A stretch of DNA of 64,000 bases from Rhynchopus sp. YZ270_cl-10 (lineage: Eukaryota; Euglenozoa; Diplonemea; Diplonemida; Diplonemidae), in contig OZ037860.1 in assembly GCA_964035575.1 (NCBI GenBank), positions 124,001 to 188,000 on the forward strand, written 5' to 3'. Below are positions 15,252-44,935 of the stretch, one piece after another. Under the pieces are notes generated by a model that saw only the letters and a program-made list of their open reading frames with translations, was not told where the DNA came from and did not search any database. The stretch's first letter is position 1. The number at the start of each line of letters is the position of its first letter. Made by a program: the position numbers and the translations under genes.

Positions 15252-15627
15252 CCGGGGTTCATTTTTTTTTACAAAGGGGTTCATTTTTTTTTACAAAGGG
15301 GTTCATTTTTTTTTACAAGGGGTTCATTTTTTTTTACAGGGGTTCATTTTTTTTTACACAAAAAACTATGTTAAGACGAAATCCTATCTTGTTTTGTATA
15401 AAACTCTGTTGGCTCTACCGTACTCTTCGCCCGCCTTTTATACAAAACTTGAAACACCGACCATTTTTGGTCATCATTTTTTCCTTTTCATTTTTCCATT
15501 TCCTTTTTCCTTTTCCATTTCCTGTTCATTTTATTGTCTTTATTGTCTTCTCCATTTCTTCCTTTTTCCTTTCTAATCTCATAAAAAACTAGACCAAGTA
15601 CAAAAGAGAAAAAAAAAAAAAAAAAAA
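15252..15627 (+). mobile_element. Short poly(A) retroelement (SINE-like) inside LINE A copy 1
   Basis: Flanked by an exact 9-bp TSD, CAACTCCGG (15243-15251 and 15628-15636). The uninterrupted site is seen in LINE A copy 2 near 39533-39541. It ends in about 20 A on the plus strand. The first ~100 bp are five imperfect tandem copies of a unit of about 20 bp starting GGTTCATTTTTTTTTACA; the rest is AT-rich and non-coding. No tRNA-like A/B boxes are evident, so it may be a SINE of another origin or the end of an unknown LINE. Confidence 0.8.
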
Positions 15628-15779: not shown

Positions 15780-15801
15780 TTTTTTTTTTTTTTTTTTTTT
15801 T

Positions 15802-15839
<38 letters not shown>

Positions 15840-15850
15840 CCACCTCCACT

Positions 15851-15882
<32 letters not shown>

Positions 15883-25034: not shown

Positions 25035-25075
<41 letters not shown>

Positions 25076-26721: not shown

Positions 26722-26772
26722 TTTTAAAAAAGCAAAAACCAAAAAACGAAAACAAAGAAGGACAAGACACAC

Positions 26773-27630: not shown

Positions 27631-30600
27631 CTATTTGAAGGTCGCCTCCATCATCAGCACCAGGACCGCCCTAAGCGCCCCGTACTGACTCGTCTGCCGT
27701 CCTCCGACGCGCCCCAGCTCCTCCCGCTGATCCCACCACGCGTCCAGCGCCTCGTACGCCACCTCCGGTGCCAAGGGAGTCATTCCCTCTCGCCTGGTCC
27801 CTCCCCTGGGGAAGAAGCAGTCCGCCCACTCTTCGACATTTCTCGGCACCCTGTCCCCTTCCTTCTGGCTGTGTGGGACTAACCCTTTCGCCTCCACATC
27901 CGACCCTCGCGAGATAGGGGGAGAAGGCCGCCTTGCTGTGGTCTCCGCAGACCTGTCCTCCACTACACCGGAGCGACGAGTGTGGTTCCCCTGCGCCCGC
28001 CGCGAAGTCCCAAGGGTGGTCAGCTTCGTCCTTCTTTCCGCGTGGGACTTAGCCGTCCATCCACCAGTCTTCGCTGAACCCAAGTGGTGGTCACCAGTCA
28101 GAGCTGTTGGTGTGGTGTTGTAGCTCTGCTCTGATGGCCCCCAGACGAAGGATTCTGCTGCGGTTGCGGTGTTGTTGTCCATGGTGGTGTCGTGGTCGGC
28201 GCAGTCGGCGGAATCCTCCTCATCCATAACCTCCTCCTTCACCTCCGTTGCCGCGTCCTGTGGGGGAGCTGGGTTGCTGTTGTAGTAGCTACCTCCCACT
28301 GTCTGCGATGTTGTCGGCTGAACTGGCTGAACTGGCTGAACTGGCTTTGCCCTCAGCACACACTTTGCGTTGGCGCTCCCACATCCCTCACACCATGTGC
28401 GCTCGCAGGAACTACAAAACCAGTGGGGGACACTACATTCGGTGATGAGTGCGCAGTTTTCGCACGTGAGCAATTCCCCCTGTCTCCCCGGGCGCTCCTC
28501 CATCCGTGACAGCGCTCCGGTGCTGTGGCACTGCATCTCTGGAAGGGGGGTGTCGGGGGCAAGGCTTCGCAGATATGCAAACGTGTTGTCTGTCATGCAT
28601 AACGGCGAGAAGTGGCCAGCCTCGTGAGCTCCTGTGTGCAGCACTGCTACGGCCCCGTTCGACTTGCTGGCTGGTCTATGGATGTGCACCTTAGAGTCCG
28701 ATGACACGACCGCCACAATGACTACCTGCAAAGCCCGTGCCAGACCCGCCAGTGCTGTCTGGTCCGCCCACGACCTGCGATCCCTGTTCCCTGCCAGGCT
28801 CATCCATCGCACCCAGGTCGCGAGGTCGGGCATCGCATTTCTCGCCAGGTCAGCATCTCTCTTCACTCTCTCCACCGCCAGGGACCGAAGGGTCGACGAT
28901 GTCACCACCTTCCAGCTCCGCACTGACCAGCACACTGCGTCGAACGCACAGTCTCCTACTCGGAACGGCACGGGCACCTGCGGTCGGGACAGCCCCCACT
29001 TCACCAAGTTGGCCTCCAGTTCGCTGTGGGGGGTTGGGTCCTGTGCTGCTGTCTCTGGCGCCGTTTCCTTCTCGTTGCCTGTCTCTGGCTCCTCCTCCGC
29101 ACTCACCCTGATGTCTCCCTGGTGGTCGTCTGTCACTTCCAGGTTAGGTAGATGGTCGGGGGGCAAGCGTATCAAGTCCCCCTCTTCCGGGTCGACGGTG
29201 GGATCTAAGTCCACACGCTCTCGCAGAGGACCCCTCAGGCAACCAGTCAGAGACCCTCGATCCGTCGCGGCCTTCCCGATCTGTCGCTGCAGCGTCGTCC
29301 CTAGCCCCCAATTCCACCTCTGTGACATCTCCACTCTGTTCCCAAGCTTCCTGTCCGCTGCGAAACGGAGCATCTGCTGCCATATCGACGCCGCCGCGGG
29401 TCCCAGACCTCCTGTGGTCTCCAGGGCGAAGGGTGTGAACGCCAGCCGCTCCGCCGCACACGCGTCACCATGCTTCTTCCTCTTGGCAGTTTCCGCCTTC
29501 GTCGCCGCGTACCCCTTCGCGACTGCGGCACCCTGCACCATCGACGCTGACGTCGGCGTCCACACAGTCACATCGATAGCTCGTCCTCTCGACTCCCCGA
29601 CCCCTGTGGACAGCAGAATGTCAGCGGGCTTGTTGTTGCCCAGGATGAGGTGGTTGGGTTCCAGGATGGGGCTCAGACCTGCCTCATTTGCTGCTCCATA
29701 CACATAATCGCGTACTGAGTTATGTCGCAGTATACGATGCCCACCCATTCTGCAGGCGAAGATGTGGTCCCCCCTGGTGTCCATGGGCTGGTTGCATTGC
29801 CTGCATGAGACACCCTCCGCGTATATGGGGAGGTGGAGGCGGAGTCTGGCTGCGGCCTTGAATGCAATCGGAGGGATGTAGTGCTCCCAGGTGGGGGGTG
29901 CAGTAAGCCAGGACCCTGCTTGGGGGAGGGCCAGAGAATTGAGACGCGCCTTGTCGTACGCATCACCCTTGACGAAGAGGTCCCGCAATTGTTCCTCCAG
30001 GATCCCTGCAGACAGATCACGTTGACGCAGGGGGACGGCTGGCTGCAGCTTGGGGTCAATCCTAGCACCTTCAGCCACTTGCTCGTTGTACAGCGTTGCC
30101 GTCCGTTCCCATCCTTCGGCGTCCCAGGTGAAGCTGGGGTCCAGTTCGGTGCACAGTTGGTGCAGGCCGCTCCTTGCTCCCATGGCTGCTGCAGTCCAGT
30201 GGTCGCGGATGCGGCGCACGCCCATGCCCCCTACCCTACATGGCAGTGCGGCCTGTCTCCGTGCTTCTTCCGGCAGGCCTCCATCCTCATCACCAAAAAG
30301 CGCGGCCAGGGCAGCGTCTACCTCCTTGTCGTACTGGCTGAGGTACTTGTGGGTGCACGCGTGACCAATGGCTCTCATGTAGAAAACCATGCGTGCAAAC
30401 CCCTCGCACTGACGGAGTAATGTCAGTCCAGCCTGCGAGTCAGACACCTTCTGCAGCAGACGCAGTTGCACCGCGAATTCCTCCACCTTCTTCTCCATGT
30501 ACGCTTCGCAGTACTCGTCGTCCCCGATTGGCGCCCCCAGGAACGCAAAGCCTCCATACTTCACGCTCATCACTTTTCCTTCACAGGCTGAGCAAGTCTC

Positions 30601-33600
30601 CGCCAAGTCAGTGGTGTGGCTGCACACGGGGAGGCCAGCTCTGTCCAGGTCCAACGGAGTCTGCTGTCCTAGGGCGATGACTTCACACTTTGACAGCTTC
30701 ACCTTCAGCCCCAGCTCCGCACTGCGTGTCCTCACTAACTCCAGCGCTCGAGCCACCGCCTCTGGGTTCCCCATGATCGTCCCATCATCGAGGTACCAGA
30801 TGCTACAGTCGATGCCCTGGACTGCACGCACTTCGTCTGTCAGTGCTTTGATCCCCAGGGAGAAGAGTAGGGGCCCTGCGGGGTCGCCTTGCTGCGCGCC
30901 TCTGGTGGATGGGATCATCTCGTCACCATACACTAGCCCGGTGTGGGAGTTGTAGCACCATTCGACCCACGGTGAAATGGACGGGAGATATTTCCTTGTG
31001 GCTTCCAGAAAAGTCTTGCGAAAGATGCTGTTGAATGCGTTCTCGTAGTCAATCTGTACGATCACTTTGTCGCTCCCCTGGTGTCGTTTTGCGTATGCTG
31101 CCACAACCATTGTCGCCGCTTCCAGTCCACCGTCCACCGCCACCCCAACTTGTCTCCCTGGCAGCAGCACTCCTCGTGCCTTTTCCCTCACAGACGCCAC
31201 CTCGATCTTGCTCACGACTCGCCGAAGTGTGTTGCCTGCAGAGATGGGGCGGACGTCGCCTTGGTCACCCTTCTTTAACGCCACCAGAGTAGCTCCTGCC
31301 ATGAACATAGCTGTCTCGGAGGGGGCTTTCCCGCGTCGCAGCAGGTCCAGGACTTGCGTCATCAGTGGCAAGATGTTCAGGTCCGGGTGTTTGACCATCC
31401 ACCCCTTGAGGTGATCCCCGCGCAGACCAAAGGGACCTGGAGCAGAGCCCTTTGCCATGCTATTTATGGCTTTGAGGGCGGCGATCGGCTTCAGCGGCTC
31501 GGAAGCAATTTCCGGCAGAGAAGTGGCAGGTTGGGGTTCCTCATGGGGGTGCTTTCTGCGGAGGATGTCTGTGGATTCCTCAGTACGCTCTGCCAGCCCA
31601 CCCTTGTGGAGGCGGCTCATCCCTGCTGCCATCCTCCCATTCCGCACCTCCCGGACCATCGCCTTCTCCCTTTCTTCCCACGTTGGTTCCTTCCGCTCCT
31701 TCTCCTTCTTCGTACCGCCTGTGCGATTCGCAGCTGCTCGCCACATTGCTGCGATCTCACCTTCTCTCCACTCATCCACATCCTTCTGCCGCAAGACTGC
31801 CACCTTCGTCTTGAGGTGCTTCCCACCTCGCTTCGCCGGTAGGACCAGCTTCGCGAACATGCACAAACGTTTCCAGCTTGCCTCATCGCCAACTGCGGCC
31901 ACATCCTCAAGTGCCTGGGTGAACTCCACAGCGGCTGGACGGTCGATGCTCGTGGGGATCGCATCTGTTGTCCTGATGGGGATTTGAGCTATCTCCCACC
32001 ACTCCGGCAAGTCAACGTCGTCTGCCTTTTCCACTGCGGTGCGTTCCCTGGGTGTGGGCTTTGCGATCGCCTTTACCAGTTTCGCACACTGAAGACATGT
32101 CTCCTTCGATGCCGACCGTATCCCCCCACACGCTTCACACTGTCCTAACCCCAACTTGTTGAGGGTGTCGTGGGGGATGTGGTCGCCGGAAGACAGGTGT
32201 GCACCGATGTGTGTGCGCAGGCCGGGAACAGAGAAGGGCTGGGGACGGTGTAGACTGCTTCCGTTGCAACACGGAACAGGGCAGAAGAGCCTCGGTGCAT
32301 CAGCCCCCAGAGGAGAAGGCGACTCCTTCGTCATGGCAGGGATGGGTGTTGCTGTTAGGCCTTTCGGGTCAAGCTCTGCGAAGGGGGCCGACTGGACCAT
32401 TGCCAGGGCGTTCTTTGGGTCCATTTGCACTTCCTCATAGTGATTATTGAGGAGTGAAACTACCCTGACGCGGCGGTCTTTCTGCGTCCGCAAGTCTTTC
32501 GATGAGGCTGCGGGGTTGATCGTCACCACTGGATTCGGCCCAGGCTGCACTACCGCTATCGTGGTGGACCATGCATTTGCTGCCAGGTGTAGGGTGAGGT
32601 GGTTGCCCCACACCTCAGGGTTGGTGAGGCCGTCAATGAAGCTTGACAGCTGTGCCTCGGTCTCGAAGTAGCGTCTGAGACCGGTCTTCACCTTCGTGAC
32701 CCGCGCTCTGTCAGCCAGCTCAGTGCGTGCTTTGCTGACATCCAAGTACAGCGCGTTCTTCTTACCCAGTAAGGCCACGTACATGCACTCGCCGTTGGCT
32801 GCGTTCGGCACCCTCTTCCCCCCATGCACCTCGAGGAATGCGTCAAGGTTTGCCGCCTCCTCCGGGTTGATGTCCCCGTCTGCTCCACCTGCCAGCGCCC
32901 CGGGCCCCAGGCTTATGCTCTGAGGTGACAGCTCCCACCCGTCCCCTGTCCCCGCCGGTCGCCTCAACCTCTGCATGAAAACCCACACCCTGCTGGCAAG
33001 TACTCGCAACCACAGCCTCCCGCTACGTGCTCTGTATCGGCCCTGTAGGAGCCCCTTCCTCAGCAGCACACTCAGCAGCTCTGCGTCCCGGATCAGTGCA
33101 CAACCCAAAGCCCGTGGCGCCGATCTCCCAAGCTCATACCCCACGCAAACCAGAGCCCAGATGGCCACCCACTGCAAAGCCACTCTCACAACGGCTGCCC
33201 TTATCCTGCGGAAAAGTTGAGAGGGCGGACGCTTGCATGGCGCCTTGCGCCGACGGAACCTGCTCGCCTGTGCCTTGGTCCAGTTCAAGGACCTGTGACC
33301 TCGGCGCGTCCTCCTGGTCCCCCTCCTACCCACCAGCCACAATATGAGGTGACTGAGGGTAGGGGCGCGTCTGTCCTTCCACATGTCCAGGACCGCGAAA
33401 GACACAAACACACCCCACTCAGGTGCCTCGGCTACCCAGCGGGGGTCTGGTCGGCGCAGAGAAGAAAGGCGTTCCCAAAGGATGCTCCACCAGTCAAACC
33501 CAAGCCCATGTTCTGCACGCCCCATGTGAACATTGGGGGTGATAAAGGTCCCCCACACCCGTAACGTCACACAGTAACTCTGTCCTTCTCGCCCCGCAAG

Positions 33601-34650
33601 GCTGGCCCCGAACACCAGCATACCTCGCTCACCCCCACCTACAGTGTTGTTGCTGCAGTTGCTGCTGCTGCTGTTGCTGTTGCTGTCGGTGCTGCTGCAG
33701 GTGCTGCTGATGCTGTTGTTGTTGCTGGTGTTACGGTTGTTGTTGTAGTTGCTGTTGTTGCTGCTGATACTGTCCGCCCGCACATCCTGTGTCCGCCCGC
33801 GCATCCGCTGTCTGCCACCGTTGTTGTAGTTGCTGTTGTTGCTGCTGATGCTGTCCGCCCGCACATCTAGTGTCCACCCGCGCATCCACTGTCTGCCACT
33901 GTTGTTGTAGTTGTTGTTGTTGTTGCTGCTGATGCTGCCCGCCCGCACATCTAGTGTCCGCCCGCGCCTCCACTGTCTGCCACTGTTGTTGTAGTTGCTG
34001 TTGTTGCTGCTGATGCTGTCCGCCCGCACATCTAGTGTCCGCCCACGCATCCAGTGTCTGCCACCGTTGTTGTAGTTGTTGTTGTTGTTGCTGCTATCAA
34101 AGCTGCAGCCGCTTGGGTTGTTGGGCACAGGCCTCTTTTTGGGGTAATAATGGGGGGGAATGGGGGTGCACCTGCAGCTTCTGTAGCCGCTGCACATGAA
34201 GCCCTTGCGGCCATTGCTGCAGGTGTAGATGTTGCTGGTGTGGTTGTTGGAGCCGCTATTGTTGCAGTAGACGCTGCCATAGAGGCCATCACTCCAGTCA
34301 TGGCTGCTCATGTTGCTGCAGCGAGAACGTGGTACCTGAGAGTGCTGAGTTGGTGTTGAGGAGCCCACTCGCGATACGTGCCTGCCGCAACCGTGGGAGG
34401 TACTGATGTTGATGGCAGTGCTCCTGCTCACGATGCTGCTGCTCATGCTGCTGCTGCTCATGCTGCTGCTGCACATGCTGCTGCTGCTCATGCTGCTGCT
34501 CATGCTGCTCCTGCTCATGCTGCTGCTGCTGCGCATGTTGCTCATGTTGCTGCACCAGCTTCGGCTGTCACCCCCGCCATCATCCATGGCTCCACACAGG
34601 AGCACCATAGCCCAAAGCTGGGCACTCCACCTGCACATCTTCACCACCAA
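27631..34650 (-). CDS. LINE B polyprotein (OTU1-zinc finger-RT-CCHC/RLE-OTU2-finger-tail), intact
   Basis: Uninterrupted 2,339-codon frame; the start may be the ATG at 34650 or the next at 34638 (MCRWSAQLWAMVLL, signal-like). In order: Ser/Met/Asn-rich low-complexity region; a region with hydrophobic segments shared with LINE A (EWGVFVSFAVLD, LILWLVGRR); OTU-like 1 (NGECMYVAL, WGNHLTLHLAA, NNHYEEV); Cys/His finger (CPVPCCNG...LRTHIGAH); RT with QIDYENAFN, GAQQGDPAGPLLFSL and YLDD at about residue 1286; CCHC (CRQCNQPM...GDHIFAC); restriction-like endonuclease (RHNSVRDYV, KPADILLS, AIDVTV); OTU-like 2 (VGDCAFDAV, SWADQTALAGLARALQV, AGHFSPL); finger (CENCALI...CSSCERTWCEGC); acidic tail. It differs from LINE A throughout, so it is a separate family. 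It looks coding-competent. Confidence 0.85.
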   Translation of the reverse strand: MVVKMCRWSAQLWAMVLLCGAMDDGGGDSRSWCSNMSNMRSSSSMSRSSMSSSMSSSSMCSSSMSSSSMSSSIVSRSTAINISTSHGCGRHVSRVGSSTPTQHSQVPRSRCSNMSSHDWSDGLYGSVYCNNSGSNNHTSNIYTCSNGRKGFMCSGYRSCRCTPIPPHYYPKKRPVPNNPSGCSFDSSNNNNNYNNGGRHWMRGRTLDVRADSISSNNSNYNNSGRQWRRGRTLDVRAGSISSNNNNNYNNSGRQWMRGWTLDVRADSISSNNSNYNNGGRQRMRGRTQDVRADSISSNNSNYNNNRNTSNNNSISSTCSSTDSNSNSSSSNCSNNTVGGGERGMLVFGASLAGREGQSYCVTLRVWGTFITPNVHMGRAEHGLGFDWWSILWERLSSLRRPDPRWVAEAPEWGVFVSFAVLDMWKDRRAPTLSHLILWLVGRRGTRRTRRGHRSLNWTKAQASRFRRRKAPCKRPPSQLFRRIRAAVVRVALQWVAIWALVCVGYELGRSAPRALGCALIRDAELLSVLLRKGLLQGRYRARSGRLWLRVLASRVWVFMQRLRRPAGTGDGWELSPQSISLGPGALAGGADGDINPEEAANLDAFLEVHGGKRVPNAANGECMYVALLGKKNALYLDVSKARTELADRARVTKVKTGLRRYFETEAQLSSFIDGLTNPEVWGNHLTLHLAANAWSTTIAVVQPGPNPVVTINPAASSKDLRTQKDRRVRVVSLLNNHYEEVQMDPKNALAMVQSAPFAELDPKGLTATPIPAMTKESPSPLGADAPRLFCPVPCCNGSSLHRPQPFSVPGLRTHIGAHLSSGDHIPHDTLNKLGLGQCEACGGIRSASKETCLQCAKLVKAIAKPTPRERTAVEKADDVDLPEWWEIAQIPIRTTDAIPTSIDRPAAVEFTQALEDVAAVGDEASWKRLCMFAKLVLPAKRGGKHLKTKVAVLRQKDVDEWREGEIAAMWRAAANRTGGTKKEKERKEPTWEEREKAMVREVRNGRMAAGMSRLHKGGLAERTEESTDILRRKHPHEEPQPATSLPEIASEPLKPIAALKAINSMAKGSAPGPFGLRGDHLKGWMVKHPDLNILPLMTQVLDLLRRGKAPSETAMFMAGATLVALKKGDQGDVRPISAGNTLRRVVSKIEVASVREKARGVLLPGRQVGVAVDGGLEAATMVVAAYAKRHQGSDKVIVQIDYENAFNSIFRKTFLEATRKYLPSISPWVEWCYNSHTGLVYGDEMIPSTRGAQQGDPAGPLLFSLGIKALTDEVRAVQGIDCSIWYLDDGTIMGNPEAVARALELVRTRSAELGLKVKLSKCEVIALGQQTPLDLDRAGLPVCSHTTDLAETCSACEGKVMSVKYGGFAFLGAPIGDDEYCEAYMEKKVEEFAVQLRLLQKVSDSQAGLTLLRQCEGFARMVFYMRAIGHACTHKYLSQYDKEVDAALAALFGDEDGGLPEEARRQAALPCRVGGMGVRRIRDHWTAAAMGARSGLHQLCTELDPSFTWDAEGWERTATLYNEQVAEGARIDPKLQPAVPLRQRDLSAGILEEQLRDLFVKGDAYDKARLNSLALPQAGSWLTAPPTWEHYIPPIAFKAAARLRLHLPIYAEGVSCRQCNQPMDTRGDHIFACRMGGHRILRHNSVRDYVYGAANEAGLSPILEPNHLILGNNKPADILLSTGVGESRGRAIDVTVWTPTSASMVQGAAVAKGYAATKAETAKRKKHGDACAAERLAFTPFALETTGGLGPAAASIWQQMLRFAADRKLGNRVEMSQRWNWGLGTTLQRQIGKAATDRGSLTGCLRGPLRERVDLDPTVDPEEGDLIRLPPDHLPNLEVTDDHQGDIRVSAEEEPETGNEKETAPETAAQDPTPHSELEANLVKWGLSRPQVPVPFRVGDCAFDAVCWSVRSWKVVTSSTLRSLAVERVKRDADLARNAMPDLATWVRWMSLAGNRDRRSWADQTALAGLARALQVVIVAVVSSDSKVHIHRPASKSNGAVAVLHTGAHEAGHFSPLCMTDNTFAYLRSLAPDTPLPEMQCHSTGALSRMEERPGRQGELLTCENCALITECSVPHWFCSSCERTWCEGCGSANAKCVLRAKPVQPVQPVQPTTSQTVGGSYYNSNPAPPQDAATEVKEEVMDEEDSADCADHDTTMDNNTATAAESFVWGPSEQSYNTTPTALTGDHHLGSAKTGGWTAKSHAERRTKLTTLGTSRRAQGNHTRRSGVVEDRSAETTARRPSPPISRGSDVEAKGLVPHSQKEGDRVPRNVEEWADCFFPRGGTRREGMTPLAPEVAYEALDAWWDQREELGRVGGRQTSQYGALRAVLVLMMEATFK

Positions 34651-35485
34651 GAAAACAAAAAAGTCAAAACAGTAAAAAACAAAAGGACAAGGAAGACAAA
34701 ATACACGTCTCTACCTGCACTTCGCCAGAGAGGAACTACTCAACGGCCTTCTCTCTGCCCAGGACACGCCACTAGGAGGCGACAGGTAGGACCCACACAA
34801 GGGGGAAAACAAGTGGGGGAAAGGGGATAAGGGGAGAAGCAAAGGACAAGATGGGGTAGTGTGTAGCAAAACGTGTGTGCCCCTTCCTTTTTTTTTTTTT
34901 TTTTTTAGTAGTTTTCTTTTTGGTGAAAATTTTTGAGAACTTCTGTAAGTGTGACCTGACCCGACTGACTGACACCCAAAGGGTAAAACAACAATAACGC
35001 ACAACAAAATCAACAACAACAATGGTGGGTCTCGTGCTTACCTGTGGTGGTTTTGAAAAATGAAAAATTGAAATTGACCTTCACAAGGTAAAAATGAAAA
35101 ACTAAAGGAGTGAAAAAAGGAACTCAAAGGACAAGAGTTCTGTACAAACTCTACTCTACTGCACAATCTATAAAAGTGGCCCAATGGCTCCTGATGCCAC
35201 TGGCCTGGCTCTTAGACAGGTCTTCCTCCGAGACTGCCCTCTACCCTCAGAGCCTCGTCCAAGGGGTAAGGGCCGTCGCTGGGGTAGACCCGTCCTAGCC
35301 AGCAGCCAACCAAAAATATTAACAAATAGGAAGGGGGGCGGAAAGGGGGGAAAGGGGGGGCAAACCCCAAAGGATGAAAAGAACAAAAAACACAAAATAA
35401 AAAGGGTTAAAAATAAACATGGGGCAAACTGTCATTCTCTACACGCTTCTACACACACACTCTCACCCTCTAACTCTCTAACTCT

Positions 35486-38400
35486 CTAATTCTTTTTATT
35501 CCCCTTTTTCCCCTTCCTTCCTCCGCTCTGTCTCCCCTTCTGTCCACCACCGCGACCATTGCGCCCTCTCTGCACCTCCTGGGGCGAGAGCACATGCTGC
35601 GTCGCTTGTGCCACTGCGTCGGTGAACACGTTCGACGTGTTGGACCTACCCTGAGCTGCATGGCGCTGGGGTCCTTTGGGAGCTGGGGAAGGAGCAGGTT
35701 GGGCGGAGGAGGTTGCATTGCCACGGCCTGCCGATGAGGAGGAGGAAGAAGTGGAGACTGCAGGTTGGGCGATGGAGGTTGTAGTGCCACGGCCTGCAGA
35801 GGTGGAGGAAGAAGAAGAAGAAGAGGAGGCTTGAGGTTGTCGGCCTATTCCCTCTCGAGCCGCTCGTGCCTCATTCTCCCTCCTTGTGCTCTCCGCTGCA
35901 AAGGCCTGCCCCCTAGTGCTCCGGTTGTCCGTCAGGGCATGCAACGTCGACTTTGCCTTGCACTTTTCCTGAACCGACCACTCATGCAAACCCACCACCT
36001 TCATCACCTCATACCACTGAGTGAAAGTAGCGGTAGAGAGGGGGAGTGACAACAAGGGTCTGCCATCCTGTTTCTCTCCCTGACGGTAGTGGAACAGGGA
36101 GATCCACTTCGTCACAGAAGAAGGCACCGGCGACCCCATGGTGAGGCACGGGAAAAGACCCCCCCTCTCCGTCCGCTCCTCCTCCGTCCACATCCAAGCC
36201 TCGCTCTGCGCCCTCAGCAATTCCCTCACCCTCGCTTGCTTCTTCTGGTCAGGGATGCCTTCCACTGACAGAGAATGTGCGCGATCCGCCCCCTCCATCG
36301 CGGTGTCGAGGTCCTCCTCCTGCTCCTGCTCATCATCATCCATCTCCTCCACCTTCACACGCACCTCGGTGTCTGCCGCCTCGGCCTGTCGCCCCACCTC
36401 CTCCTCCAGCTGATCCCGAGAAGGGGTTCCCCAGCTGACCCTGCCTTCCCGAACGACGATGACCGCGCTGGTCTTGCCCCAGGTGTCGCAGTATCCGGCC
36501 TCCCCTGCTATCTTCCTAACCGCCTGACGGGCGACCACCGACTCCGGGCAATCACCGTCCCCCTCCCCGTTCCCACTCCACGGCTGCTGTGTCGCCCAGC
36601 AGTACAGGAACTCGCCCGGGCACGGAGAAGCACCTTGAGGACCAAAGAGAGCCATCCAGTCGCCGACACAGTCAGGTTCGAGTCCTTCAGGGTCGTCGCC
36701 CACCGCTCTCCGCACCGCATGGCAGGGGAGGAATAGCCGCCCTTCGCACACCACCCCAAAGCACCGCCCGTATGCCACCATGCGTTCTGCCTCCAGCTGT
36801 CGGGAGAGGTTCACCGCCGTCAACAACAGAGTGGTCGCCTTCTGCTCCGACTCATGCTTAGCTGCGATGGCGTAATGCCTCTCGCAGCGTTGCCTGTCAT
36901 ACTCCGCCCGGAGCGACTCTCCTGCTTCGGGGTGCCGATCGCAGTCTTCCAAGTACTGCGCATGCATCTTCTTCGCGTCCTCTGCGAGTTCCCGCTTGTG
37001 CCTGGCGGTCAGCTCCTCCACACGATGCCTGTCCGCCGCCTTCGCCTGGTCCAGACGCACATTCTGTTCCTCCAGGAAACGACTCAACTCCTGCTGGCGG
37101 TCGCCAAAAGTGCCCCGAAGCGCGGCCAAATCCGGTCCCCACGACCGACGATGCTCCCGCCGTACCTCCAGGGCTTGCTGCCACGCGTCCGACGCACGCT
37201 GCAACGCTTCCTTCTTCTCCTGGTCCGCCTTTTGTTGTTGCTGCTTCTGCTGTTTCCGTTGCTTCTCGTGCTTCTGCTGCTTCTGTTCTGCCTGCTGCCC
37301 CTCTTCGCCCGCCATTGGCATGTCTACCTCCTCGACGTCCTCGCCCTCGGGAGCTGGCACTGCTGGAGAAGGAGCCCGTTTAGGTGGTGGGTCTCCGCTC
37401 CCCTCCGCAGAGGCAGCCTGAGCCGGAACATTCGAGTGCAAAAAAGACAGGGCACTGAAATATTCCGCCCTGCCAATTTGCGACAGAGGGCAGTGCTTGG
37501 ACCCCTGAGCGCAGTGCAGACATGCCAAGCCACCACACGTGTGACAGCAGAAGTGTGCGTCCGACGCATCGAAGAGCTTGCTGCATTGTTCGCACTGCAG
37601 GAAAGTGTTCGACGCCTCCGCCTCCCTCGCTCCCACAAAAGCCATGGGGCGCTCTGACTGGCACTCCCCCTTACCACCTGTGGCCTCAAAAGACAGGATG
37701 TGCTGCTGCAGAGCCGGGTCCATGGTGAGGGGCTCGTAGTGTCCCGGGATACTGCCGGATCCATCTGCCGCATCCTGATCACCCGAGTGGAGGAGAAGGA
37801 CCACTGCCTTAGGCCGTTTTCTTGGCACCATCAGAGAAGGGCGGGCGAACTCGTTGAGGATGACCACAGATACCTCAAGAGCCTCCCCTGCCCCCGCCAC
37901 TGCAATGGCATCCGCCCACGTACGCTCGTCTCCTCTGTCCCCACTCGTCATCAGCCGCTGCCAGACCCCAAAATTAGGGACAGCCGCACTCGACAGATCA
38001 GCGCGGCCCTGGACCTTCTTCACTGCCGCCTGGCGCAGACCCTCCACCGACAAATCCGTGCGCCCAGTGGCGAAGAGCAAAGCCTCAAAAGCACAGTCCC
38101 CCGCCACAAACGACCAAGTCACCTTCGAGGCTCCCAGCTTGGCCGCCTGTTCCGTCGCCCGAGGCCTCTGCGCTGCCGGGCACTCACGCAAAAACTCCCA
38201 CTCACGCACCACATCGAGACCCGGCCCTTCCGGAATCACGGTAGCCGAATCGAACCTCCCGGTCCGCTTCCTCGGTGGCTCCACGTGGTCCGGCTTCACG
38301 TCCCTCTTGCGCTTCCCCTGCTGCTCCTCCGACCGGTCTGGAGCAGGACGACTCATATCATCGTCAGGGTTCGCATCATCACAGAGAGGTTCCACGGCCC

Positions 38401-41400
38401 CTGCACTGCGGCGTCCAAACCGGTCCATGTCCTCTGCAGACGGTGCCACATCTACCTCCACACACGGCTCCCGCTTCAGGGTGGCAATCCCCACACACAT
38501 AGCACCCCGCTCCAGAAAGGAAGATGCGACCTTTTTCTGGTACGCCACCGCAATGCTCTCCCGGATGCGCAACTCTGCCGACCCTGTCAGGTGCGACGTC
38601 TGTCCCGTCGTCAGGCCTCCAAGCTGCGCAATCAAGAGGTTCGCCTCGTCGCCTGCACCCCCGAAGGCTTCAAACACAATAGGGGAGAACTTGGTGTTGA
38701 TCTTGTTCAAATCCCGCTCGTGCTTCTCCCGTTTGACCTGGCCCTGGTTCTTCGCCGACCAGCCCACAAACTTCGAGGCCCCTGTTCTGTAGGAAGGCAA
38801 AGTGGGGCACACGTGGGTGATGTCCAAACAACGAGGTCCATTTTCCGCCACTCCTACTGGGAGGTAGACGTCGCCTGGCCGCTTCTTCGACTCCAAATCC
38901 ACTCTCACGGTCTCCTCCAAAGCAGGGTCCAAGCCCGCCCCTTGAGCCGCTCGGTACACCGAATCCCGCAAGGCGTTGTGGCGGGCGACGCGGTGTTTGG
39001 AGTAGGGGCAGCCAAAGGTGTGGTCGCCAAAGGAGTCCATGACAACCCTTTTCTGCCCCCCCTGACATGCCGAGCAAGTCGTTCCCTCCGCATGGATGGC
39101 CACCCCTAGTCGGAAACGGGTCACAACCGCAAAGTCCGCTGAAGACATCTGGTTCCTTGCTGAGGGTGTCGCCGTGAGGTACGTCCCAGAAAGCGGCAGG
39201 AGAAGGGACTTCATCCGTGCTCGGTCTCGCATGCAGAGCTGTTGCATCAACTTGTCTGCCTGGGCGTCAATCACCGCAGATGACAGACTCTGCTGCTCCA
39301 GGATCTTCTTCGGCTGAGCCCTGTCCACGTGAAACGCCACCGGTACCCTGGAGTTGTACTCCTCAGCCGCGCTGTTCCATCTCTCCTCATCCCAGGTGAA
39401 GGCAGGGTCCAAGGCCTGCGACAGTTGCAGGTTCCCTGACTGAGAGGCGAGGGACGCAGCCGTCCGATGGTCCACTGTGCGACGGATACCCAGCCCCCCA
39501 AGCGCCACAGGAAGCGCCGCCTGCGCCCTTGCCAACTCCGGCAGCGCCCCATCCGGGTCATGCAGAAGCGCAGCCAGGCACCTGTCGATCAGGTCGTCAA
39601 AGGCCGTCAGGTACTCCGCGCACTGTGGGATCCCCCGCATGTAGAACACCATGCGGCAGTAGCCTTCGCAGTATCTCAGTACGTAGAAGGCTGCCTGGGA
39701 GTCCCCGAGGTCCACAAGGGCTTCCAGGTTGCGGCGGGAATCGTCCACCTTCTGGGCCATGTACTCCTCGCAGAAAGCCGCAGACCCAATGGGGATGCCC
39801 AAGAAGTCGAACCCATCCACATCCAACAGCCGGAACCCGCCTTCACCCATGGCGTCCTGTCCACCCTCGTTCAACGTGAACCCCACGGCCTCGAGATCCT
39901 CCTTGGAGACGCCACCAGTGGAGATGAGCTCACACTTGTTCGCGTTCACCTCCAACCCCAGTTCGGAGCTACGAGTGCACAGAACCTGGTACGCCTCAAA
40001 AACCGCCTTAGGGGACCCCCGCAGAGAGCCGTCATCGAGGTACCACAAAGTCCCATCCAGGCCTGGGTGCCCCTTCAGCTCTAGCGCCATCTGGTGGATG
40101 GTCAGGGAGAAGAGAAGCGGGCCCAAGGGATCTCCTTGTTGAGCTCCGCGCTGTGACCTTATGGTATCCCCACCATAAAACAGGCTGGAGGGCTCCAGGT
40201 AACACCATCGCACCCATGGGGCCAGCTCGGGGAGGTTGGCGTCGACCGCTCTTAGCATCGACAGGCGGTCTACGCAGTTGAACGCGTTACGGTAGTCAAT
40301 TTTCAAAATGACTTTACCTTTTCCGCGGTTGCGCACGGCGTACTGCGAGATAACATCAGTCGCCACTGCCGCCCCCCTTGCCGTTGCCACCCCCACCTGG
40401 TTCCCTCGAAGAAGAAGCGTCCTAGCAGGCACCCGCACTCGCGCCGACAGAATCTTTCCCACCAGTCTGCGGAGAGTGTCCCCAACCGCAATCGGACGCA
40501 CGTCCTCCTCCAGGCCCGGCCCCTTTGCAGGCTTCCGGAGAGCCACCAAGTTAGCGCCGGCGAAGAACTCAGCCACCTCCACTGGAGCATTTCCTCGTGC
40601 CAAAGACGTCAACACTGCGGCCAGCGCTGCCAAAGTGCCCTTAGCCCGCCTCTGTAGGCAAAGTGTACGAAGGTGCGCGCCCGTCACGTTCGAGGGACCC
40701 GCCGCCGATGACTTCGGCATGCTCCGCAGGGCCTTCATCACCTCCACCACTGTCACCGGTGGGACCTCCTGAGGCTGGGGCCAATCCGCCTGCTCCAGGG
40801 CCTTGGAGTCGGCAGCGGCTGGGTGCTTCGTCTGAAGCTTTTCCAGCGTCGCCGGTGTCTGTGGGGCGAGGCCGTCGCTGGTAGCGCAAGACATGGCCTG
40901 GCTCGGGAGTCCTGCTCTCGCTTTGGCGATGGTGCGCTTCCGTCTCCCTTCGTCAGTGTCCTCATCCGACCACCCAGAGGGCCTTGGCTTCCGCTCCTCT
41001 ACCGTTTGCTCCCACAGGGCGACATACTGGCCAGCCTTCCAAGCCTCCAAGTCCTTCCCCCAGGTGCTCGTCAAACGTCGCTCCTGGTCCTTGCCCCCTC
41101 GTTCTGTCCGTGTCCGGTGCAACACAGTGAAGAACAGTGCAAGGCGCTTCCATGCCACCTCGTCTTGGTACTCAAGGATGTCCATAAGAACCCTCAGGAA
41201 GAGCTCGCTGTACAGCTGCAGGTGTTTGTCTGGGCACCCGCCCTTCAGCTGGATCCTGGTGGTCCCCATGACTTCAAAGGAGGGGAGGTCATCCTGATCT
41301 GTCAGCATTCCTCGACTGGAGGGAGACGGAGCGGTGAAGCCTTCTTCGCCAAAGTGCACCGTACAGGTGTTGCAGACCTCCTTGCTCTGCGGCAATAGCA

Positions 41401-44296
41401 TGTCGCACTGATCGTTCGCACAGCGCGACATGCCCAAGTGGCCCAACAGCTCGTCGGGGATGTACGCTCCATCCGCCTGGTGGCGACGCATATGCTGCAG
41501 CAAGCCCTTACGAGACAGGCCCCCGACCGCATCACTCGAAGACAAAATTCCCGCTCTGCATCCATCAAAGGGGCAGAACACCCGATCCGCATTGATGTGC
41601 CCCAGCTTGGTAGCCAGGGGGGCGGTGGTGGTGGTGTTGGTGGGGATGATGCCATCCAAATGCGCTGTGTCCAGCACTGCCTGCCGAGCCTCCTTCCTCA
41701 TCTTCTCTGCCATCCCCTCCTTGGTCTTCCCCACCTCCGGGACAAGCTCCACTGCCTCAAAGTGAGAGTCACAGAGAGCGATGACGACCGTGGGAAGTTT
41801 CGCTTGGAAGCTCTCCGCGTACGACTTGGCGACTCTTTTGCTACCAGGGGTGATGCGCACGAGGGGGTTCTCTTCCGATGCCTGCACCACCACGATGTTG
41901 ATGCGGGATGCTGTCGCGGTGAGCTGAAGCCCCAAGTGGTTGAGGTGGGCCTCGCCGGTCACACCATTGGCAAACTCCGTCATGGCCTCCTGCGACCCCA
42001 GCACCTGCACCAGGCGGTTCGACACCTCCACTGCTGTGTCATACAGCTGCTTGCGCATTGCCCTCACGTCCGGCTGCGTGTCGTGGTCCCAGAGGTGTAG
42101 TGCCACATAACCACAATCATTTGTGGACACGTTGGGGATGCGTTTAGCTCCAAACTTCGCCAGAGTCGCGTCCACAGACACCGCTTGCTCTGTATACGCA
42201 GGAGCGTTCACGTTTGCGCACCCACCGGTCAACGCAAACGGGGACAAGCTGATCGGGTGCTCCGGATCCGCAGGGGCAGGGCGCAGGTCCCAGGGCGTCA
42301 CCGCTCGCCACAACAGCGACAGCAAGACCAGTAGGGACACCACCAGCATGCCAAATGCCATCCCGATCCTACGAGTCCACCTGCGTGCTGCCACACGGCG
42401 CACCTCCAAGAGAAGAACCCAGCCAAGTGGGCGCGCGACGCCGACCAGTGCCACAAAACCCGCCAAACAACCACCTGCGGACCATGCAACCCACACCCAC
42501 TCGGCTGCACACACCGACAACTGACCCACCCCCATCACACTGGCCCTCACCAAGCTGGCAGCCACTCGGATCCCTCCGGTCCATCGGCGCACTCGCTCGC
42601 TCGCCCCTTCCAGCCACCGCCATCCTCTCCGAACGCGGCACAGTCCCCGCAGCACACCCACCCCCAGCACCTCCGCGTCCCGAAAAAGCGCGCAACCCAA
42701 AACATGTGGCGCTGACCTCCCAAGCTCAGACCCCACAAAAACCAGAACCCAGATGGCCACACACTGCAAAGCACCTCTCAACGCATCGGCGACCCTGATC
42801 CTGCGGAAAACTGGGTGCGCTGCCGGAGAGGGCGGACGATTGCAGGGCGCCTTGCGCCGACGGAGCCTGCCCGCCTGTGACTTGGTCCAGTTCAAGGACC
42901 GGTGTCCTCGTCGCGTCCTCCTGGTCCTCCTGCCCACTAGCCACAAAATGAGATGACTGAGGGTAGGGGCGCGTCTGTCCTTCCACAGATCCAGGACCGC
43001 GAACGACACAAACACTCCCCACTCAGGTGCCTCGACTACCCAGCAGGGGTCAGGTTGACGCAAGGAGGTGAAGACCTCCCAGAGGTTGCACCACCAGTCG
43101 AACCAAAACTCTATCTGTACACACCCCTTTTGCCACACCCGCATCATCACACAGCCACTCTGTCCTTCTCGCCCCTCAAGGCTGACCCCGAACACCAGCA
43201 TACCTCGCTCACCACCCCCTAAGTTGTTGTTGCTGCGTCTGCTGTTGATGTTGGTGCTGCTGTTGGACCTGCTGTTGGAACTGCTGCTGCAGAAGTCTAT
43301 GGAACTGCAGTTGAAACTGCTGTTGTGCCTGCTGTTGGAACCGCTGCTGCAGAAGTCTTTGGAACTGCTGTTAAAACTGCTGTTAAGCCTGCTGTTGGAA
43401 CTGCTGTTGGACCTGCCGTTAGAGCTGCTGCCGCAGAAGTCCTTGGAACTGCTGATGAAACTGCTGTTGTGCCTGTTGCTGGAACTGCTTTTGGAAACGC
43501 TGTTGGAACTGCTGCTGCAGAAGCCATTGGAACTGCTGTTGGAGACGCTGCTGGACCCGCCGTTGGAGCTGCTGCCGCAGAAGCCATTGGAACTGCTGTT
43601 GAAACTGCTGTTGTGCCTGCTGTTGGACCTGCTGTTGGAGCTGCTGCTGCAGAAGTCTTTGGAACTGCAGTTGAAACTGCTGTTGTGCCTGCTGTTGGAC
43701 CTGCTGTTGGAACCGCTGCTGCTGAAGCCTTTGGAACTGCTGGTGAAAAAGCTGTAGAGCCTGCTGTTGGAACTGCTGCAGTAAAGGCCTTTGGAACTGC
43801 TGCTGCTGCACACCAGGGGTGATACTGGGACCCCACCCAGGACTCCGAAGATTTCGTTTTTGCTGCTATCACAGTTGCAGCCACTGATGTGGTTGGGCAT
43901 ACATTGCCTCTTTTTGGGGATATCATGGGGGGAAGGGGGGTGTGGGTTGTTATGACAACAGTTCTTTACTTTGTTGCCTCCACACACGTTTTTGTTGCTG
44001 CTATCAAAGCTGCAGCTGCTTGGGTTGTTGGGCTCAAGAGGCCTCTTTTTGGGGTAAAAAAGGGGGGGAATGGGGCTCCTGCCACTGATGAGGAAGCTGT
44101 TGTAGCATAGGAAGCTGCCGCTCCTGCTGTTGGTGCTCCTGCTACTGCTGTTGATGCAGCTTATGTTGTTGCTGCTGTTGCTGCTGTTGCTGCTGTTGCT
44201 GCTGTTGCTGCTGCTGTTGGTGTAGCACCTGCTGCTGCTGCTGATGCAGACATGCAGCACCACCCACAACGCCCCCAAAAGGGCCTTCCTCCTCAT
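35486..44296 (-). CDS. LINE A polyprotein, full length (double-OTU, RT, restriction-like endonuclease)
   Basis: About 2,936 residues from MRRKALLGALWVV. The frame is open further upstream to 44677, but that part is leader repeats. Residues ~20-360 are Ser/Asn-rich. Then come hydrophobic, Trp-rich segments (e.g. GMLVVSLLVLLSLLW) and OTU-like 1 with C728 (TNDCGYVAL) and H845 (DSHFEAV). A C2H2 finger follows at ~905-950. RT has D1334 (KIDYRNAFN), GAQQGDPLGPLLFSL and Y1419-LDD. CCHC and restriction-like endonuclease follow (RPGDVYLP with D1809, LDITHV). OTU-like 2 has C2068 (AGDCAFEAL) and H2186 (GHYEPL). The end is a Cys-rich finger, a Gln/Lys coiled coil, an FPCLTMGSPVPSS module and a Ser-rich basic tail. 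RLE-type LINEs normally end soon after the endonuclease; the ~1,000-residue extension with a second protease is unusual. Confidence 0.88.
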   Translation of the reverse strand: MRRKALLGALWVVLHVCISSSSRCYTNSSSNSSNSSNSSNSSNNISCINSSSRSTNSRSGSFLCYNSFLISGRSPIPPLFYPKKRPLEPNNPSSCSFDSSNKNVCGGNKVKNCCHNNPHPPSPHDIPKKRQCMPNHISGCNCDSSKNEIFGVLGGVPVSPLVCSSSSSKGLYCSSSNSRLYSFFTSSSKGFSSSGSNSRSNSRHNSSFNCSSKDFCSSSSNSRSNSRHNSSFNSSSNGFCGSSSNGGSSSVSNSSSNGFCSSSSNSVSKSSSSNRHNSSFISSSKDFCGSSSNGRSNSSSNSRLNSSFNSSSKDFCSSGSNSRHNSSFNCSSIDFCSSSSNSRSNSSTNINSRRSNNNLGGGERGMLVFGVSLEGREGQSGCVMMRVWQKGCVQIEFWFDWWCNLWEVFTSLRQPDPCWVVEAPEWGVFVSFAVLDLWKDRRAPTLSHLILWLVGRRTRRTRRGHRSLNWTKSQAGRLRRRKAPCNRPPSPAAHPVFRRIRVADALRGALQCVAIWVLVFVGSELGRSAPHVLGCALFRDAEVLGVGVLRGLCRVRRGWRWLEGASERVRRWTGGIRVAASLVRASVMGVGQLSVCAAEWVWVAWSAGGCLAGFVALVGVARPLGWVLLLEVRRVAARRWTRRIGMAFGMLVVSLLVLLSLLWRAVTPWDLRPAPADPEHPISLSPFALTGGCANVNAPAYTEQAVSVDATLAKFGAKRIPNVSTNDCGYVALHLWDHDTQPDVRAMRKQLYDTAVEVSNRLVQVLGSQEAMTEFANGVTGEAHLNHLGLQLTATASRINIVVVQASEENPLVRITPGSKRVAKSYAESFQAKLPTVVIALCDSHFEAVELVPEVGKTKEGMAEKMRKEARQAVLDTAHLDGIIPTNTTTTAPLATKLGHINADRVFCPFDGCRAGILSSSDAVGGLSRKGLLQHMRRHQADGAYIPDELLGHLGMSRCANDQCDMLLPQSKEVCNTCTVHFGEEGFTAPSPSSRGMLTDQDDLPSFEVMGTTRIQLKGGCPDKHLQLYSELFLRVLMDILEYQDEVAWKRLALFFTVLHRTRTERGGKDQERRLTSTWGKDLEAWKAGQYVALWEQTVEERKPRPSGWSDEDTDEGRRKRTIAKARAGLPSQAMSCATSDGLAPQTPATLEKLQTKHPAAADSKALEQADWPQPQEVPPVTVVEVMKALRSMPKSSAAGPSNVTGAHLRTLCLQRRAKGTLAALAAVLTSLARGNAPVEVAEFFAGANLVALRKPAKGPGLEEDVRPIAVGDTLRRLVGKILSARVRVPARTLLLRGNQVGVATARGAAVATDVISQYAVRNRGKGKVILKIDYRNAFNCVDRLSMLRAVDANLPELAPWVRWCYLEPSSLFYGGDTIRSQRGAQQGDPLGPLLFSLTIHQMALELKGHPGLDGTLWYLDDGSLRGSPKAVFEAYQVLCTRSSELGLEVNANKCELISTGGVSKEDLEAVGFTLNEGGQDAMGEGGFRLLDVDGFDFLGIPIGSAAFCEEYMAQKVDDSRRNLEALVDLGDSQAAFYVLRYCEGYCRMVFYMRGIPQCAEYLTAFDDLIDRCLAALLHDPDGALPELARAQAALPVALGGLGIRRTVDHRTAASLASQSGNLQLSQALDPAFTWDEERWNSAAEEYNSRVPVAFHVDRAQPKKILEQQSLSSAVIDAQADKLMQQLCMRDRARMKSLLLPLSGTYLTATPSARNQMSSADFAVVTRFRLGVAIHAEGTTCSACQGGQKRVVMDSFGDHTFGCPYSKHRVARHNALRDSVYRAAQGAGLDPALEETVRVDLESKKRPGDVYLPVGVAENGPRCLDITHVCPTLPSYRTGASKFVGWSAKNQGQVKREKHERDLNKINTKFSPIVFEAFGGAGDEANLLIAQLGGLTTGQTSHLTGSAELRIRESIAVAYQKKVASSFLERGAMCVGIATLKREPCVEVDVAPSAEDMDRFGRRSAGAVEPLCDDANPDDDMSRPAPDRSEEQQGKRKRDVKPDHVEPPRKRTGRFDSATVIPEGPGLDVVREWEFLRECPAAQRPRATEQAAKLGASKVTWSFVAGDCAFEALLFATGRTDLSVEGLRQAAVKKVQGRADLSSAAVPNFGVWQRLMTSGDRGDERTWADAIAVAGAGEALEVSVVILNEFARPSLMVPRKRPKAVVLLLHSGDQDAADGSGSIPGHYEPLTMDPALQQHILSFEATGGKGECQSERPMAFVGAREAEASNTFLQCEQCSKLFDASDAHFCCHTCGGLACLHCAQGSKHCPLSQIGRAEYFSALSFLHSNVPAQAASAEGSGDPPPKRAPSPAVPAPEGEDVEEVDMPMAGEEGQQAEQKQQKHEKQRKQQKQQQQKADQEKKEALQRASDAWQQALEVRREHRRSWGPDLAALRGTFGDRQQELSRFLEEQNVRLDQAKAADRHRVEELTARHKRELAEDAKKMHAQYLEDCDRHPEAGESLRAEYDRQRCERHYAIAAKHESEQKATTLLLTAVNLSRQLEAERMVAYGRCFGVVCEGRLFLPCHAVRRAVGDDPEGLEPDCVGDWMALFGPQGASPCPGEFLYCWATQQPWSGNGEGDGDCPESVVARQAVRKIAGEAGYCDTWGKTSAVIVVREGRVSWGTPSRDQLEEEVGRQAEAADTEVRVKVEEMDDDEQEQEEDLDTAMEGADRAHSLSVEGIPDQKKQARVRELLRAQSEAWMWTEEERTERGGLFPCLTMGSPVPSSVTKWISLFHYRQGEKQDGRPLLSLPLSTATFTQWYEVMKVVGLHEWSVQEKCKAKSTLHALTDNRSTRGQAFAAESTRRENEARAAREGIGRQPQASSSSSSSSTSAGRGTTTSIAQPAVSTSSSSSSAGRGNATSSAQPAPSPAPKGPQRHAAQGRSNTSNVFTDAVAQATQHVLSPQEVQRGRNGRGGGQKGRQSGGRKGKKGNKKN

Positions 44297-44592
44297 TTTA
44301 AAAAAGACTTTAAAAAAGCAAAAACCAAAAAACGAAAACAAAGAAGGACAAGACACACTACGCCTTGCGCTTCGCCGGCCTGCACTCCTCAACCGTTGCC
44401 CAGGGACCGCCCCGTGGAGGCGTACAAGGCTCACAATAAAACAAAGGAAAGGGGGAGGGAGGGTAAAAAGAAAGGACAAGTGTGTTGTAATGTGTAAAAA
44501 ATGGTCCCCTGTAAAAAATGGTCCCCTGTAAATGTAAAAAGACTTTAAAAAAGCAAAAACCAAAAAACGAAAACAAAGAAGGACAAGACAGG
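44297..44592 (-). repeat. LINE A leader, two tandem partial monomers
   Basis: 44297-44360 and 44535-44592 share a stretch containing GACTTTAAAAAAGC and GAAGGACAAGACA. Between them lie GC-rich leader sequence and two copies of AAAAAATGGTCCCCTGT. Tandem 5' monomers are common in LINE promoters. The copy 1 leader has three GGTCCCCTGT units and ends there. Confidence 0.65.
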
Positions 44593-44935
44593 CCACTCCG
44601 GTGCACAGGGTGCCGGTCCGGTGCACAGGGTGCCCCCAAAAAATCCGGTGCACAGGGTGCCAAAAAATCCGGTGCACAGGGTGCTTTTTAGCCGGGGCTT
44701 ATAACGTGGGGGGCACCCTGTGCACCGGATTGCGAACCCGTAATGGCACCCTGTGCACCGGATTAAAAGGGGCACCCTGTGCACCGGATTTTTAGGGGCA
44801 CCCTGTGCACCGTTTTTTGCGGGCACCCTGTGCACCGGATCCAGTGCCAAAAAGGCACCCTGTGCACCTTTTGGGGGCACCCTGTGCACCGGATTTGGAA
44901 CCACTATGTCACCCTGTGCACCGGATCCAGGCTTC
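44593..44935. repeat. Cluster of 12 GCACCCTGTGCACC motifs with an orientation switch
   Basis: Four copies read GGTGCACAGGGTGC (44598-44685), then eight read GCACCCTGTGCACC (44712-44925), mostly followed by GGAT and separated by short variable spacers. The switch near 44695 would let the strand fold into a long imperfect hairpin. Related four-motif clusters lie at 9840-9990 and 46664-46815. Confidence 0.85.

What the first reader, a model, noticed from the sequence alone, without database searches (positions are those of the whole stretch)
35486..44296. Giant LINE polyprotein with two OTU-like protease domains around RT and endonuclease
Seen: an intact ~2,936-residue frame with OTU-like signatures both before the RT (C728/H845) and after the restriction-like endonuclease (C2068/H2186), plus fingers and coiled coil. 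LINE B repeats the same order with divergent sequence, so both domains are kept by selection. Known: RLE-type non-LTR elements usually end soon after the endonuclease, and only some clades carry a protease. Inferred: a self-processing or deubiquitinating retrotransposon polyprotein, possibly a new clade.
Basis: partly seen in the sequence, partly recalled or inferred. Interest (0 to 1): 0.88.

Follow-up and report, generated by a model that had tools for sequence, protein, structure and literature searches.

The report
Jumping gene with two deubiquitinase-like domains
A very long, recently active jumping gene carries two protein-cutting domains of the kind cells use to remove ubiquitin tags, one before and one after its copying machinery, suggesting that it trims its own protein and shields itself from the host's disposal system.

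Summary
On the minus strand, element A is an intact RLE-type LINE with OTU folds before the RT (Cys855/His972, P0001 numbering) and after the endonuclease (Cys2195/His2313). Pfam misses both in A itself; predicted structures place both with solved OTU enzymes. The same order recurs in A, B, B2, C, D, E and F; family G is split over two incomplete proteins. One family (F) appears to lie in another genome. All eight rows in the RT tree form one clade, whose sister is a Diplonema papillatum element with a USP deubiquitinase after the endonuclease.

Related LINEs repeatedly carry ubiquitin/SUMO proteases (USP 17, OTU 3, Ulp1 1 of 120 listed) and some carry 2A-like NPGP motifs. Three families hold a dead OTU2 plus an OTU3 with intact catalytic residues.

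Best model: OTU1 processes the polyprotein in cis; the C-terminal OTU-zinc module deubiquitinates in trans. No activity is shown. Placement against CRE, NeSL or HERO was not tested.

The parts
34888..44540 (-). Element A, approximate extent (5' end near the GGGGACC repeats; 3' end at a poly-A abutting the 5' end of element B)
   Evidence: the 5' limit is approximate
35486..44677 (-).
42233..43234 (-). N-terminal domain with a hydrophobic, TM-like stretch at 42311-42367 (19-residue Kyte-Doolittle mean 2.6); 66% identical to B over residues 486-696, against 34% over 796-2398
42221..42232 (-). LTGG, candidate OTU1 self-cleavage site (L-x-G-G, then Cys)
41723..42190 (-). OTU1 (C855, H972)
41348..41575 (-). 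C2H2-like and CxxC zinc fingers between OTU1 and RT (by motif, by eye)
39791..40510 (-). Reverse transcriptase (RVT_1, E 2.9e-15; YLDDG)
38807..39076 (-). Restriction-like endonuclease core (CxxC...HxxxC finger, RPGD...D; by motif and homology to relatives)
   Evidence: motif assignment recalled, not modelled
37703..38200 (-). OTU2 (C2195, H2313)
37511..37594 (-). Cys-rich zinc finger directly after OTU2 (by motif)
36758..37360 (-). E/K/Q/R-rich, probably coiled-coil stretch (by composition only)
27631..34650 (-). Element B open frame with the same order: LAGG 32884-32895, OTU1 32416-32862, RT 30556-31275, OTU2 28591-29055, zinc finger 28381-28464
19627..26772 (-). 5' half of a second A copy (A2), interrupted inside the RT-RLE region
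11199..15284 (-). 3' half of A2 (RLE, OTU2, C-terminus)
17040..19709 (-). Frame of a 5'-truncated family-C element inserted into A2 (insert about 15780-19795, poly-A, 14-bp target duplication ACGTACTGAGATAC); carries OTU3 with intact Cys/His and its zinc finger

Best explanation
Element A is an autonomous RLE-type LINE whose single polyprotein carries two OTU cysteine-protease domains with different jobs. OTU1 acts in cis: it cuts after the ubiquitin-tail-like LxGG just upstream of itself and frees the zinc-finger/RT/endonuclease part from a hydrophobic N-terminal domain. OTU2 with its zinc finger stays on the RT/endonuclease protein and removes ubiquitin in trans, most likely from the retrotransposition complex itself (protection from the proteasome) or from proteins at the nicked target. 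Supported by computation: folds, catalytic pairs, the conserved [L/M]xGG, purifying selection, recent copying with poly-A tails. Inferred: cleavage, the division of labour and the ubiquitin targets.
Against: No activity data. The segment holding LxGG is predicted with confidence (pLDDT 84-85 over model residues 1-20) and nairovirus OTUs align from residue 1, so LxGG could be a structural turn of an N-terminal extension. B2 has MRGG, not LxGG. No conserved LxGG was seen before OTU2. C and D are close relatives and A groups with them, so the eight families are not eight independent tests. F's listed protein has no strong hydrophobic stretch (0.96). Pfam recognises neither OTU of A; scanned singly, OTU is matched in 1 of 6 OTU1 and 5 of 6 OTU2 members. 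The A/A2 count for OTU2 (3 silent, 2 replacement) is weak alone, and the same comparison gives 6 and 6 for the RT core.
Confidence: 0.5

Rival explanations
1. Both OTU domains are deubiquitinases only; LxGG is a structural part of OTU1's N-terminal extension and nothing is cleaved. They protect the LINE protein from the ubiquitin-proteasome system or edit ubiquitin at the damaged target.
For: Relatives carry unrelated USP or Ulp1 domains; in P0064, P0069 and P0091 a single OTU begins at residue 97, 10 and 21, with little upstream to cut off; nairovirus OTU sits on the polymerase and does not self-process (PMC3968130, passages); the LxGG segment is predicted as ordered.
Against: GG (8 of 8) and L (7 of 8) are the most conserved residues of an otherwise variable linker, at a variable distance (31-41) from the Cys, downstream of a hydrophobic stretch in 7 of 8; some relatives have NPGP upstream of the RT.
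Confidence: 0.33
2. Both OTU domains are polyprotein proteases: OTU1 releases the N-domain and OTU2 releases the C-terminal coiled-coil domain; deubiquitination is incidental.
For: 2,936-residue polyprotein with two proteases flanking the core; cis precedent in arteri- and tymoviruses.
Against: No conserved LxGG near OTU2; USP, which is not known (recall) to process polyproteins, occupies the post-RLE place in Diplonema and animal relatives; a zinc finger follows OTU2.
Confidence: 0.09
3. The OTU domains are non-catalytic ubiquitin-binding or structural modules.
For: OTU2 of C and D is dead (Cys and His lost) yet more conserved between them (65.5%) than OTU3 (41.1%).
Against: Cys and His are invariant in OTU1 and in one C-terminal OTU of A, B, B2, C, D, E and F.
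Confidence: 0.05
4. The OTU signatures are chance matches in a GC-rich frame.
For: Pfam-A does not report OTU in A; a PDB sequence profile of OTU1 finds one chance hit at E 2.1.
Against: Structure matches, a profile of OTU2 lists OTUD5 first though weakly (E 0.0085), conservation and selection.
Confidence: 0.02

Closest known systems
Diplonema papillatum 'Retrotransposable element SLACS 132 kDa protein' (P0012)
   Same: Sister in the RT/RLE tree (SH-aLRT 99); a deubiquitinase domain after the endonuclease
   Different: USP/UCH fold (PF00443) in place of OTU; the listed protein begins at the RT, so the presence of an OTU1 is unknown
RLE LINEs with C-terminal USP (P0043, P0112, P0131 scanned; 17 of 120 listed carry PF00443)
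   Same: RT-RLE plus deubiquitinase after the endonuclease; four also have NPGP upstream of the RT
   Different: Separate groups in the tree; USP not OTU; no second protease among the Pfam domains listed
RLE LINEs with a single N-terminal OTU (P0064, P0069, P0091; P0020 by eye)
   Same: OTU upstream of the RT
   Different: No second OTU reported; elsewhere in the tree
NeSL and Utopia-1_TSP elements (Ulp1)
   Different: Ulp1 fold; no C-terminal protease in the passages seen; U2 snRNA or spliced-leader target specificity
Ginger1 transposons (C-terminal OTU or Ulp1) and OTU-bearing Helitrons
   Same: Mobile-element enzyme fused to OTU; authors propose a role of the ubiquitin pathway in transposition (PMC2836005, passages)
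   Different: DNA transposons; in Ginger1 either OTU or Ulp1, not both
Arterivirus PLP2 and tymovirus PRO
   Same: OTU-like proteases that process their own polyprotein and deubiquitinate (PMC3968130, passages)
   Different: RNA viruses; no homology beyond the fold claimed here

Membership tests
OTU cysteine proteases | OTU fold | tested here: met
OTU cysteine proteases | Catalytic Cys and His in the family motifs | tested here: met
   OTU2 of C, D and E lacks both
OTU cysteine proteases | Score over Pfam cut-off PF02338 | tested here: not met
   A: not reported; B and P0007 above cut-off
OTU cysteine proteases | Ubiquitin hydrolysis | not testable with these tools
   needs a biochemical assay
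RLE-type non-LTR retrotransposons | RT with poly-A 3' end and target duplications | tested here: met
   RVT_1; poly-A after the element's 3' end in 23 of 24 tails examined; 14-bp duplication around the family-C insert. Duplications around A itself were not examined
RLE-type non-LTR retrotransposons | Restriction-like endonuclease after the RT | tested here: inconclusive
   Motif CxxC...HxxxC, RPGD...D and homology of the region to P0012 and P0014; no Pfam hit, fold not modelled
R2 clade | Insertion in 28S rDNA | tested here: not met
   No Rfam match (rRNA included) in the 20 fetched A 3' regions, 65,619 bases; flanks differ
Dualen/RandI | APE and RLE together | tested here: not met
   no Exo_endo_phos hit in A or B at E <= 10
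NeSL/Utopia | N-terminal Ulp1 protease (in part of the clade) | tested here: not met
   no PF02902 in A or B; RT placement not tested
CRE clade (SLACS, CZAR) | RT phylogeny and spliced-leader target | not tested
   no reference sequences obtained

The most novel reading that the evidence does not exclude
A LINE polyprotein that carries its own ubiquitin-tail mimic (LxGG) as the cleavage signal for a captured deubiquitinase, so that one captured fold serves polyprotein maturation and another disarms host ubiquitin. In the same genome an unrelated APE-type LINE has gone further and encodes UBX-like, ubiquitin (ending RLRGG), OTU, APE and RT in one frame. Ubiquitin-system capture would then be a convergent strategy across LINEs: USP, OTU, Ulp1 and ubiquitin itself.
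Probability: 0.4. Interest if true: 0.88.

Novelty: new variant of a known kind. Interest (0 to 1): 0.72.

Why it matters
LINE proteins are usually described without proteolytic processing (recall). If OTU1 cuts at LxGG, these would be LINEs with virus-like polyprotein maturation. The scattered presence of USP, OTU and Ulp1 in related RLE LINEs makes the question whether retrotransposons must counter host ubiquitin directly testable with small, well-defined domains and single catalytic mutants.

Tried and rejected
Plus-strand reading: many stops. Pfam as sole test: misses both OTUs of A. PDB sequence profile of OTU1: one chance hit, E 2.1. Site-specific insertion: flanks after the poly-A of 23 tails differ, but they are not random: 11 are A or B sequence in the same orientation, 3 in the opposite, 9 match neither; four of the 11 abut the very 5' end of B. 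I cannot say whether that is target preference or duplication. Telomere-end attachment: not supported, since copies near contig ends lie in both orientations; the poly-A faces the nearer end in 42 of 65 (binomial p 0.025, copies not independent). Spliced-leader target: the recalled SL motif matched twice (control 0), in stretches that look by eye like SL-bearing cDNA. LxGG before OTU2: none conserved. dN/dS between C and D: no DNA obtained because the genome search was not answering. P0020's OTU label in the tree is by eye; Pfam does not report it. Tree: 62 of 63 chosen rows (P0093 had no recognisable motif) out of 143 proteins held; quick method; long branches P0020, P0018, P0019, P0024; B2 is not in it. 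One search indicates that F is not in this genome (best 38% identity, 22 of 2370 candidates scored); E could not be tested. Novelty in print: searches of open-access papers listed, by title and abstract, no description of a LINE with two OTU domains, of this LxGG or of USP-bearing RLE LINEs; subscription papers and Repbase reports were not searched. Only listings were seen for papers not marked 'passages'. VIA rows without arterivirus or tymovirus entries say nothing.

Full report
OBSERVATION. The interval holds an open frame on the minus strand (44677 to 35486, 3063 codons). Element B downstream repeats the order with 34% identity over residues 796-2398 of A. A second copy of A (A2) lies at 26772-11199. 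It is split by a 5'-truncated family-C element with a poly-A tail and a 14-bp target duplication, and by a small insert with a 10-bp duplication. A, B and A2 are head to tail: A's poly-A abuts B's 5' side and B's poly-A abuts A2's.

COPIES. The window lies in an unnamed 152-Mb, 126-contig genome. The RT-RLE region of A gave 65 scored matches at 99-100% identity, none with a stop inside the matched 681 residues; 44 of 65 sit in frames of 2,900 residues or more. B gave 51 matches at 99-100% (some partial, one with a stop) and 12 at 75%, here called B2. These counts are lower bounds. Of the A copies 52 of 65, and of 50 of the 51 B copies 37, lie within 100 kb of a contig end, a zone of about 16.5% of the assembly; unknown contig lengths were bounded by rank, so these too are lower counts. 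Most A tails and B end in GAGCCTAGGGCTAAGTTGAACAACACC plus poly-A; some A tails, the window's A among them, carry poly-A earlier. The sequence after the poly-A of 23 tails is A or B in the same orientation in 11, opposite in 3, neither in 9.

SELECTION. A against A2: OTU1 5 silent and 1 replacement change over 142 silent and 446 replacement sites; OTU2 3 and 2 over 147 and 438; N-domain (482-800) 12 and 9 over 246 and 711; RT core 6 and 6 over 295 and 842; C-terminus (2701-3063) 2 and 3 over 264 and 825. B against B2: dN/dS 0.31 for OTU1 and 0.28 for OTU2 at dS about 1.6, near saturation. The N-domain ratio suggests translation from about residue 482 at the latest.

DEAD AND DUPLICATED OTUs. 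Families C and D (P0007, P0008) and E (P0009) have a second OTU whose Cys and His are both gone, followed by a zinc finger, and then a third OTU with both residues followed by another zinc finger. A, B, B2 and F have one C-terminal OTU, with both residues. Thus A, B, B2, C, D, E and F each keep one OTU with intact residues before the RT and one after the endonuclease. Family G could not be judged: P0022 is cut short after the OTU2 Cys region and P0023 lacks the N-terminus. Between C and D the dead OTU2 is better conserved (65.5%) than OTU3 (41.1%), so it probably keeps a binding role.

A CANDIDATE CLEAVAGE SITE. In the six-family alignment the first invariant columns, ahead of the OTU core, are L-x-G-G. 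Family G, found afterwards with B as query, has LRGG; B2 has MRGG. In total 8 of 8 families have [L/M]xGG and 7 of 8 LxGG, 31-41 residues before the Cys; in B, C and F it is the only LxGG of the protein. Chance per family is 0.2-5.8% by shuffling the 120 residues upstream, computed for the seven strict families. C and D are close relatives and A groups with them, so these do not multiply. The best hydrophobic stretch within about 400 residues upstream (19-residue mean 2.0-2.6) lies 27-244 residues before the motif in 7 of 8; F's listed protein has none (0.96); no null was computed. LxGG resembles ubiquitin's end (LRGG, recall).

RELATIVES. With P0014 as query, 232 proteins were found and 120 listed (the query among them): 17 carry PF00443 (USP), 3 PF02338 (OTU), 1 PF02902 (Ulp1). 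Of seven that I scanned, USP lies well after the RT in P0043, P0112 and P0131; OTU or Ulp1 lies before it in P0064, P0069, P0091 and P0066. NPGP (2A-like; search for the four letters only) occurs upstream of the RT in 11 of the 143 proteins held, including four with USP (P0086, P0104, P0113, P0125), and in none of the double-OTU proteins. In the RT-RLE tree of 62 rows the eight double-OTU rows are one group (SH-aLRT 99) whose sister is Diplonema papillatum P0012 with USP (99). USP needs at least 6 gains or losses and OTU outside this clade 3, one of the four OTU labels being by eye (quick method). Two different deubiquitinase folds thus occupy the place after the endonuclease in sister elements. 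That is my main reason for reading OTU2 as a deubiquitinase. The NPGP motifs upstream of the RT in relatives, where A has LxGG and OTU1, are my main reason besides LxGG for reading OTU1 as the processing enzyme.

HOST. Not named. Nearest named relative element: Diplonema. A recalled euglenozoan spliced-leader end matches twice, control 0. I infer a diplonemid-like euglenozoan; this is not tested. The Diplonema genome paper mentions SLACS-like gene models; the passages seen name no protease domains (PMC10161547, passages).

COMPARISON AND NOVELTY. OTU or Ulp1 on mobile elements is known: NeSL/Utopia Ulp1 (PMC4640811, passages) and Ginger1, Helitron and others (PMC2836005, passages), whose authors already suspected a role of ubiquitin in transposition. 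OTU-like viral proteases that both process polyproteins and deubiquitinate are known (PMC3968130, passages). What I did not find in print (searches named in Tried and rejected) is a LINE with OTUs on both sides, the dead/active OTU series, the LxGG site, or USP-bearing RLE LINEs. I file it as a new variant of a known kind.

Noticed in passing
L034 (G000:C3:1034500-1041500), 28-5954 minus: APE-type LINE frame with OTU1_UBXL, ubiquitin (E 4.4e-15; by eye ending RLRGG and followed by more protein), OTU, Exo_endo_phos and RVT_1 in one polypeptide: an unrelated LINE that captured ubiquitin itself plus a deubiquitinase.
   Followed up: partly
L032 and L033: Further frames with an OTU motif ahead of an APE-like endonuclease and RT (by eye); the OTU of L032 and L034 is 31-33% identical to the C-terminal OTU of RLE family F (P0010/P0011).
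   Followed up: partly
G000, (88 OTU matches); L002, L035: Multi-copy frames with OTU but no RT seen in the stretch held; L035 has an N-terminal ubiquitin-like stretch (by eye).
   Followed up: no
window 42659-43290 against 33067-33713: The 5' coding part is far closer between A and B (80% DNA, 66% protein) than residues 796-2398 (34%), which suggests recombination or template switching between LINE families.
   Followed up: partly
G000 contig ends; window 34888: A and B are concentrated within 100 kb of contig ends (52 of 65 and 37 of 50). A's poly-A is followed by same-orientation A or B in 11 of 23 tails, four at B's very 5' end, and faces the nearer contig end in 42 of 65 copies.
   Followed up: partly
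P0013, P0015-P0017, P0086, P0104, P0113, P0120, P0125, P0134, P0136: NPGP (2A-like) motifs upstream of the RT in 11 of 143 RLE-LINE proteins held.
   Followed up: partly
L030 and L031: Spliced-leader-like sequence joined to what looks by eye like coding cDNA, possible retrocopies of trans-spliced mRNA.
   Followed up: no
window 47116-48245: Long 13-bp tandem repeat (TTGCACAGCATCC) upstream of element A, open in several frames by periodicity (by eye).
   Followed up: no
P0131: Barnacle protein named 'Ubiquitin carboxyl-terminal hydrolase 2' in NCBI carries RVT_1 plus USP and groups with RLE LINEs; probably a retrotransposon misannotated as a host gene.
   Followed up: partly
P0001 residues 2805-2993 and P0005 residues 648-826: A C-terminal domain of unknown function is shared by families A and C (27% identity).
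   Followed up: no
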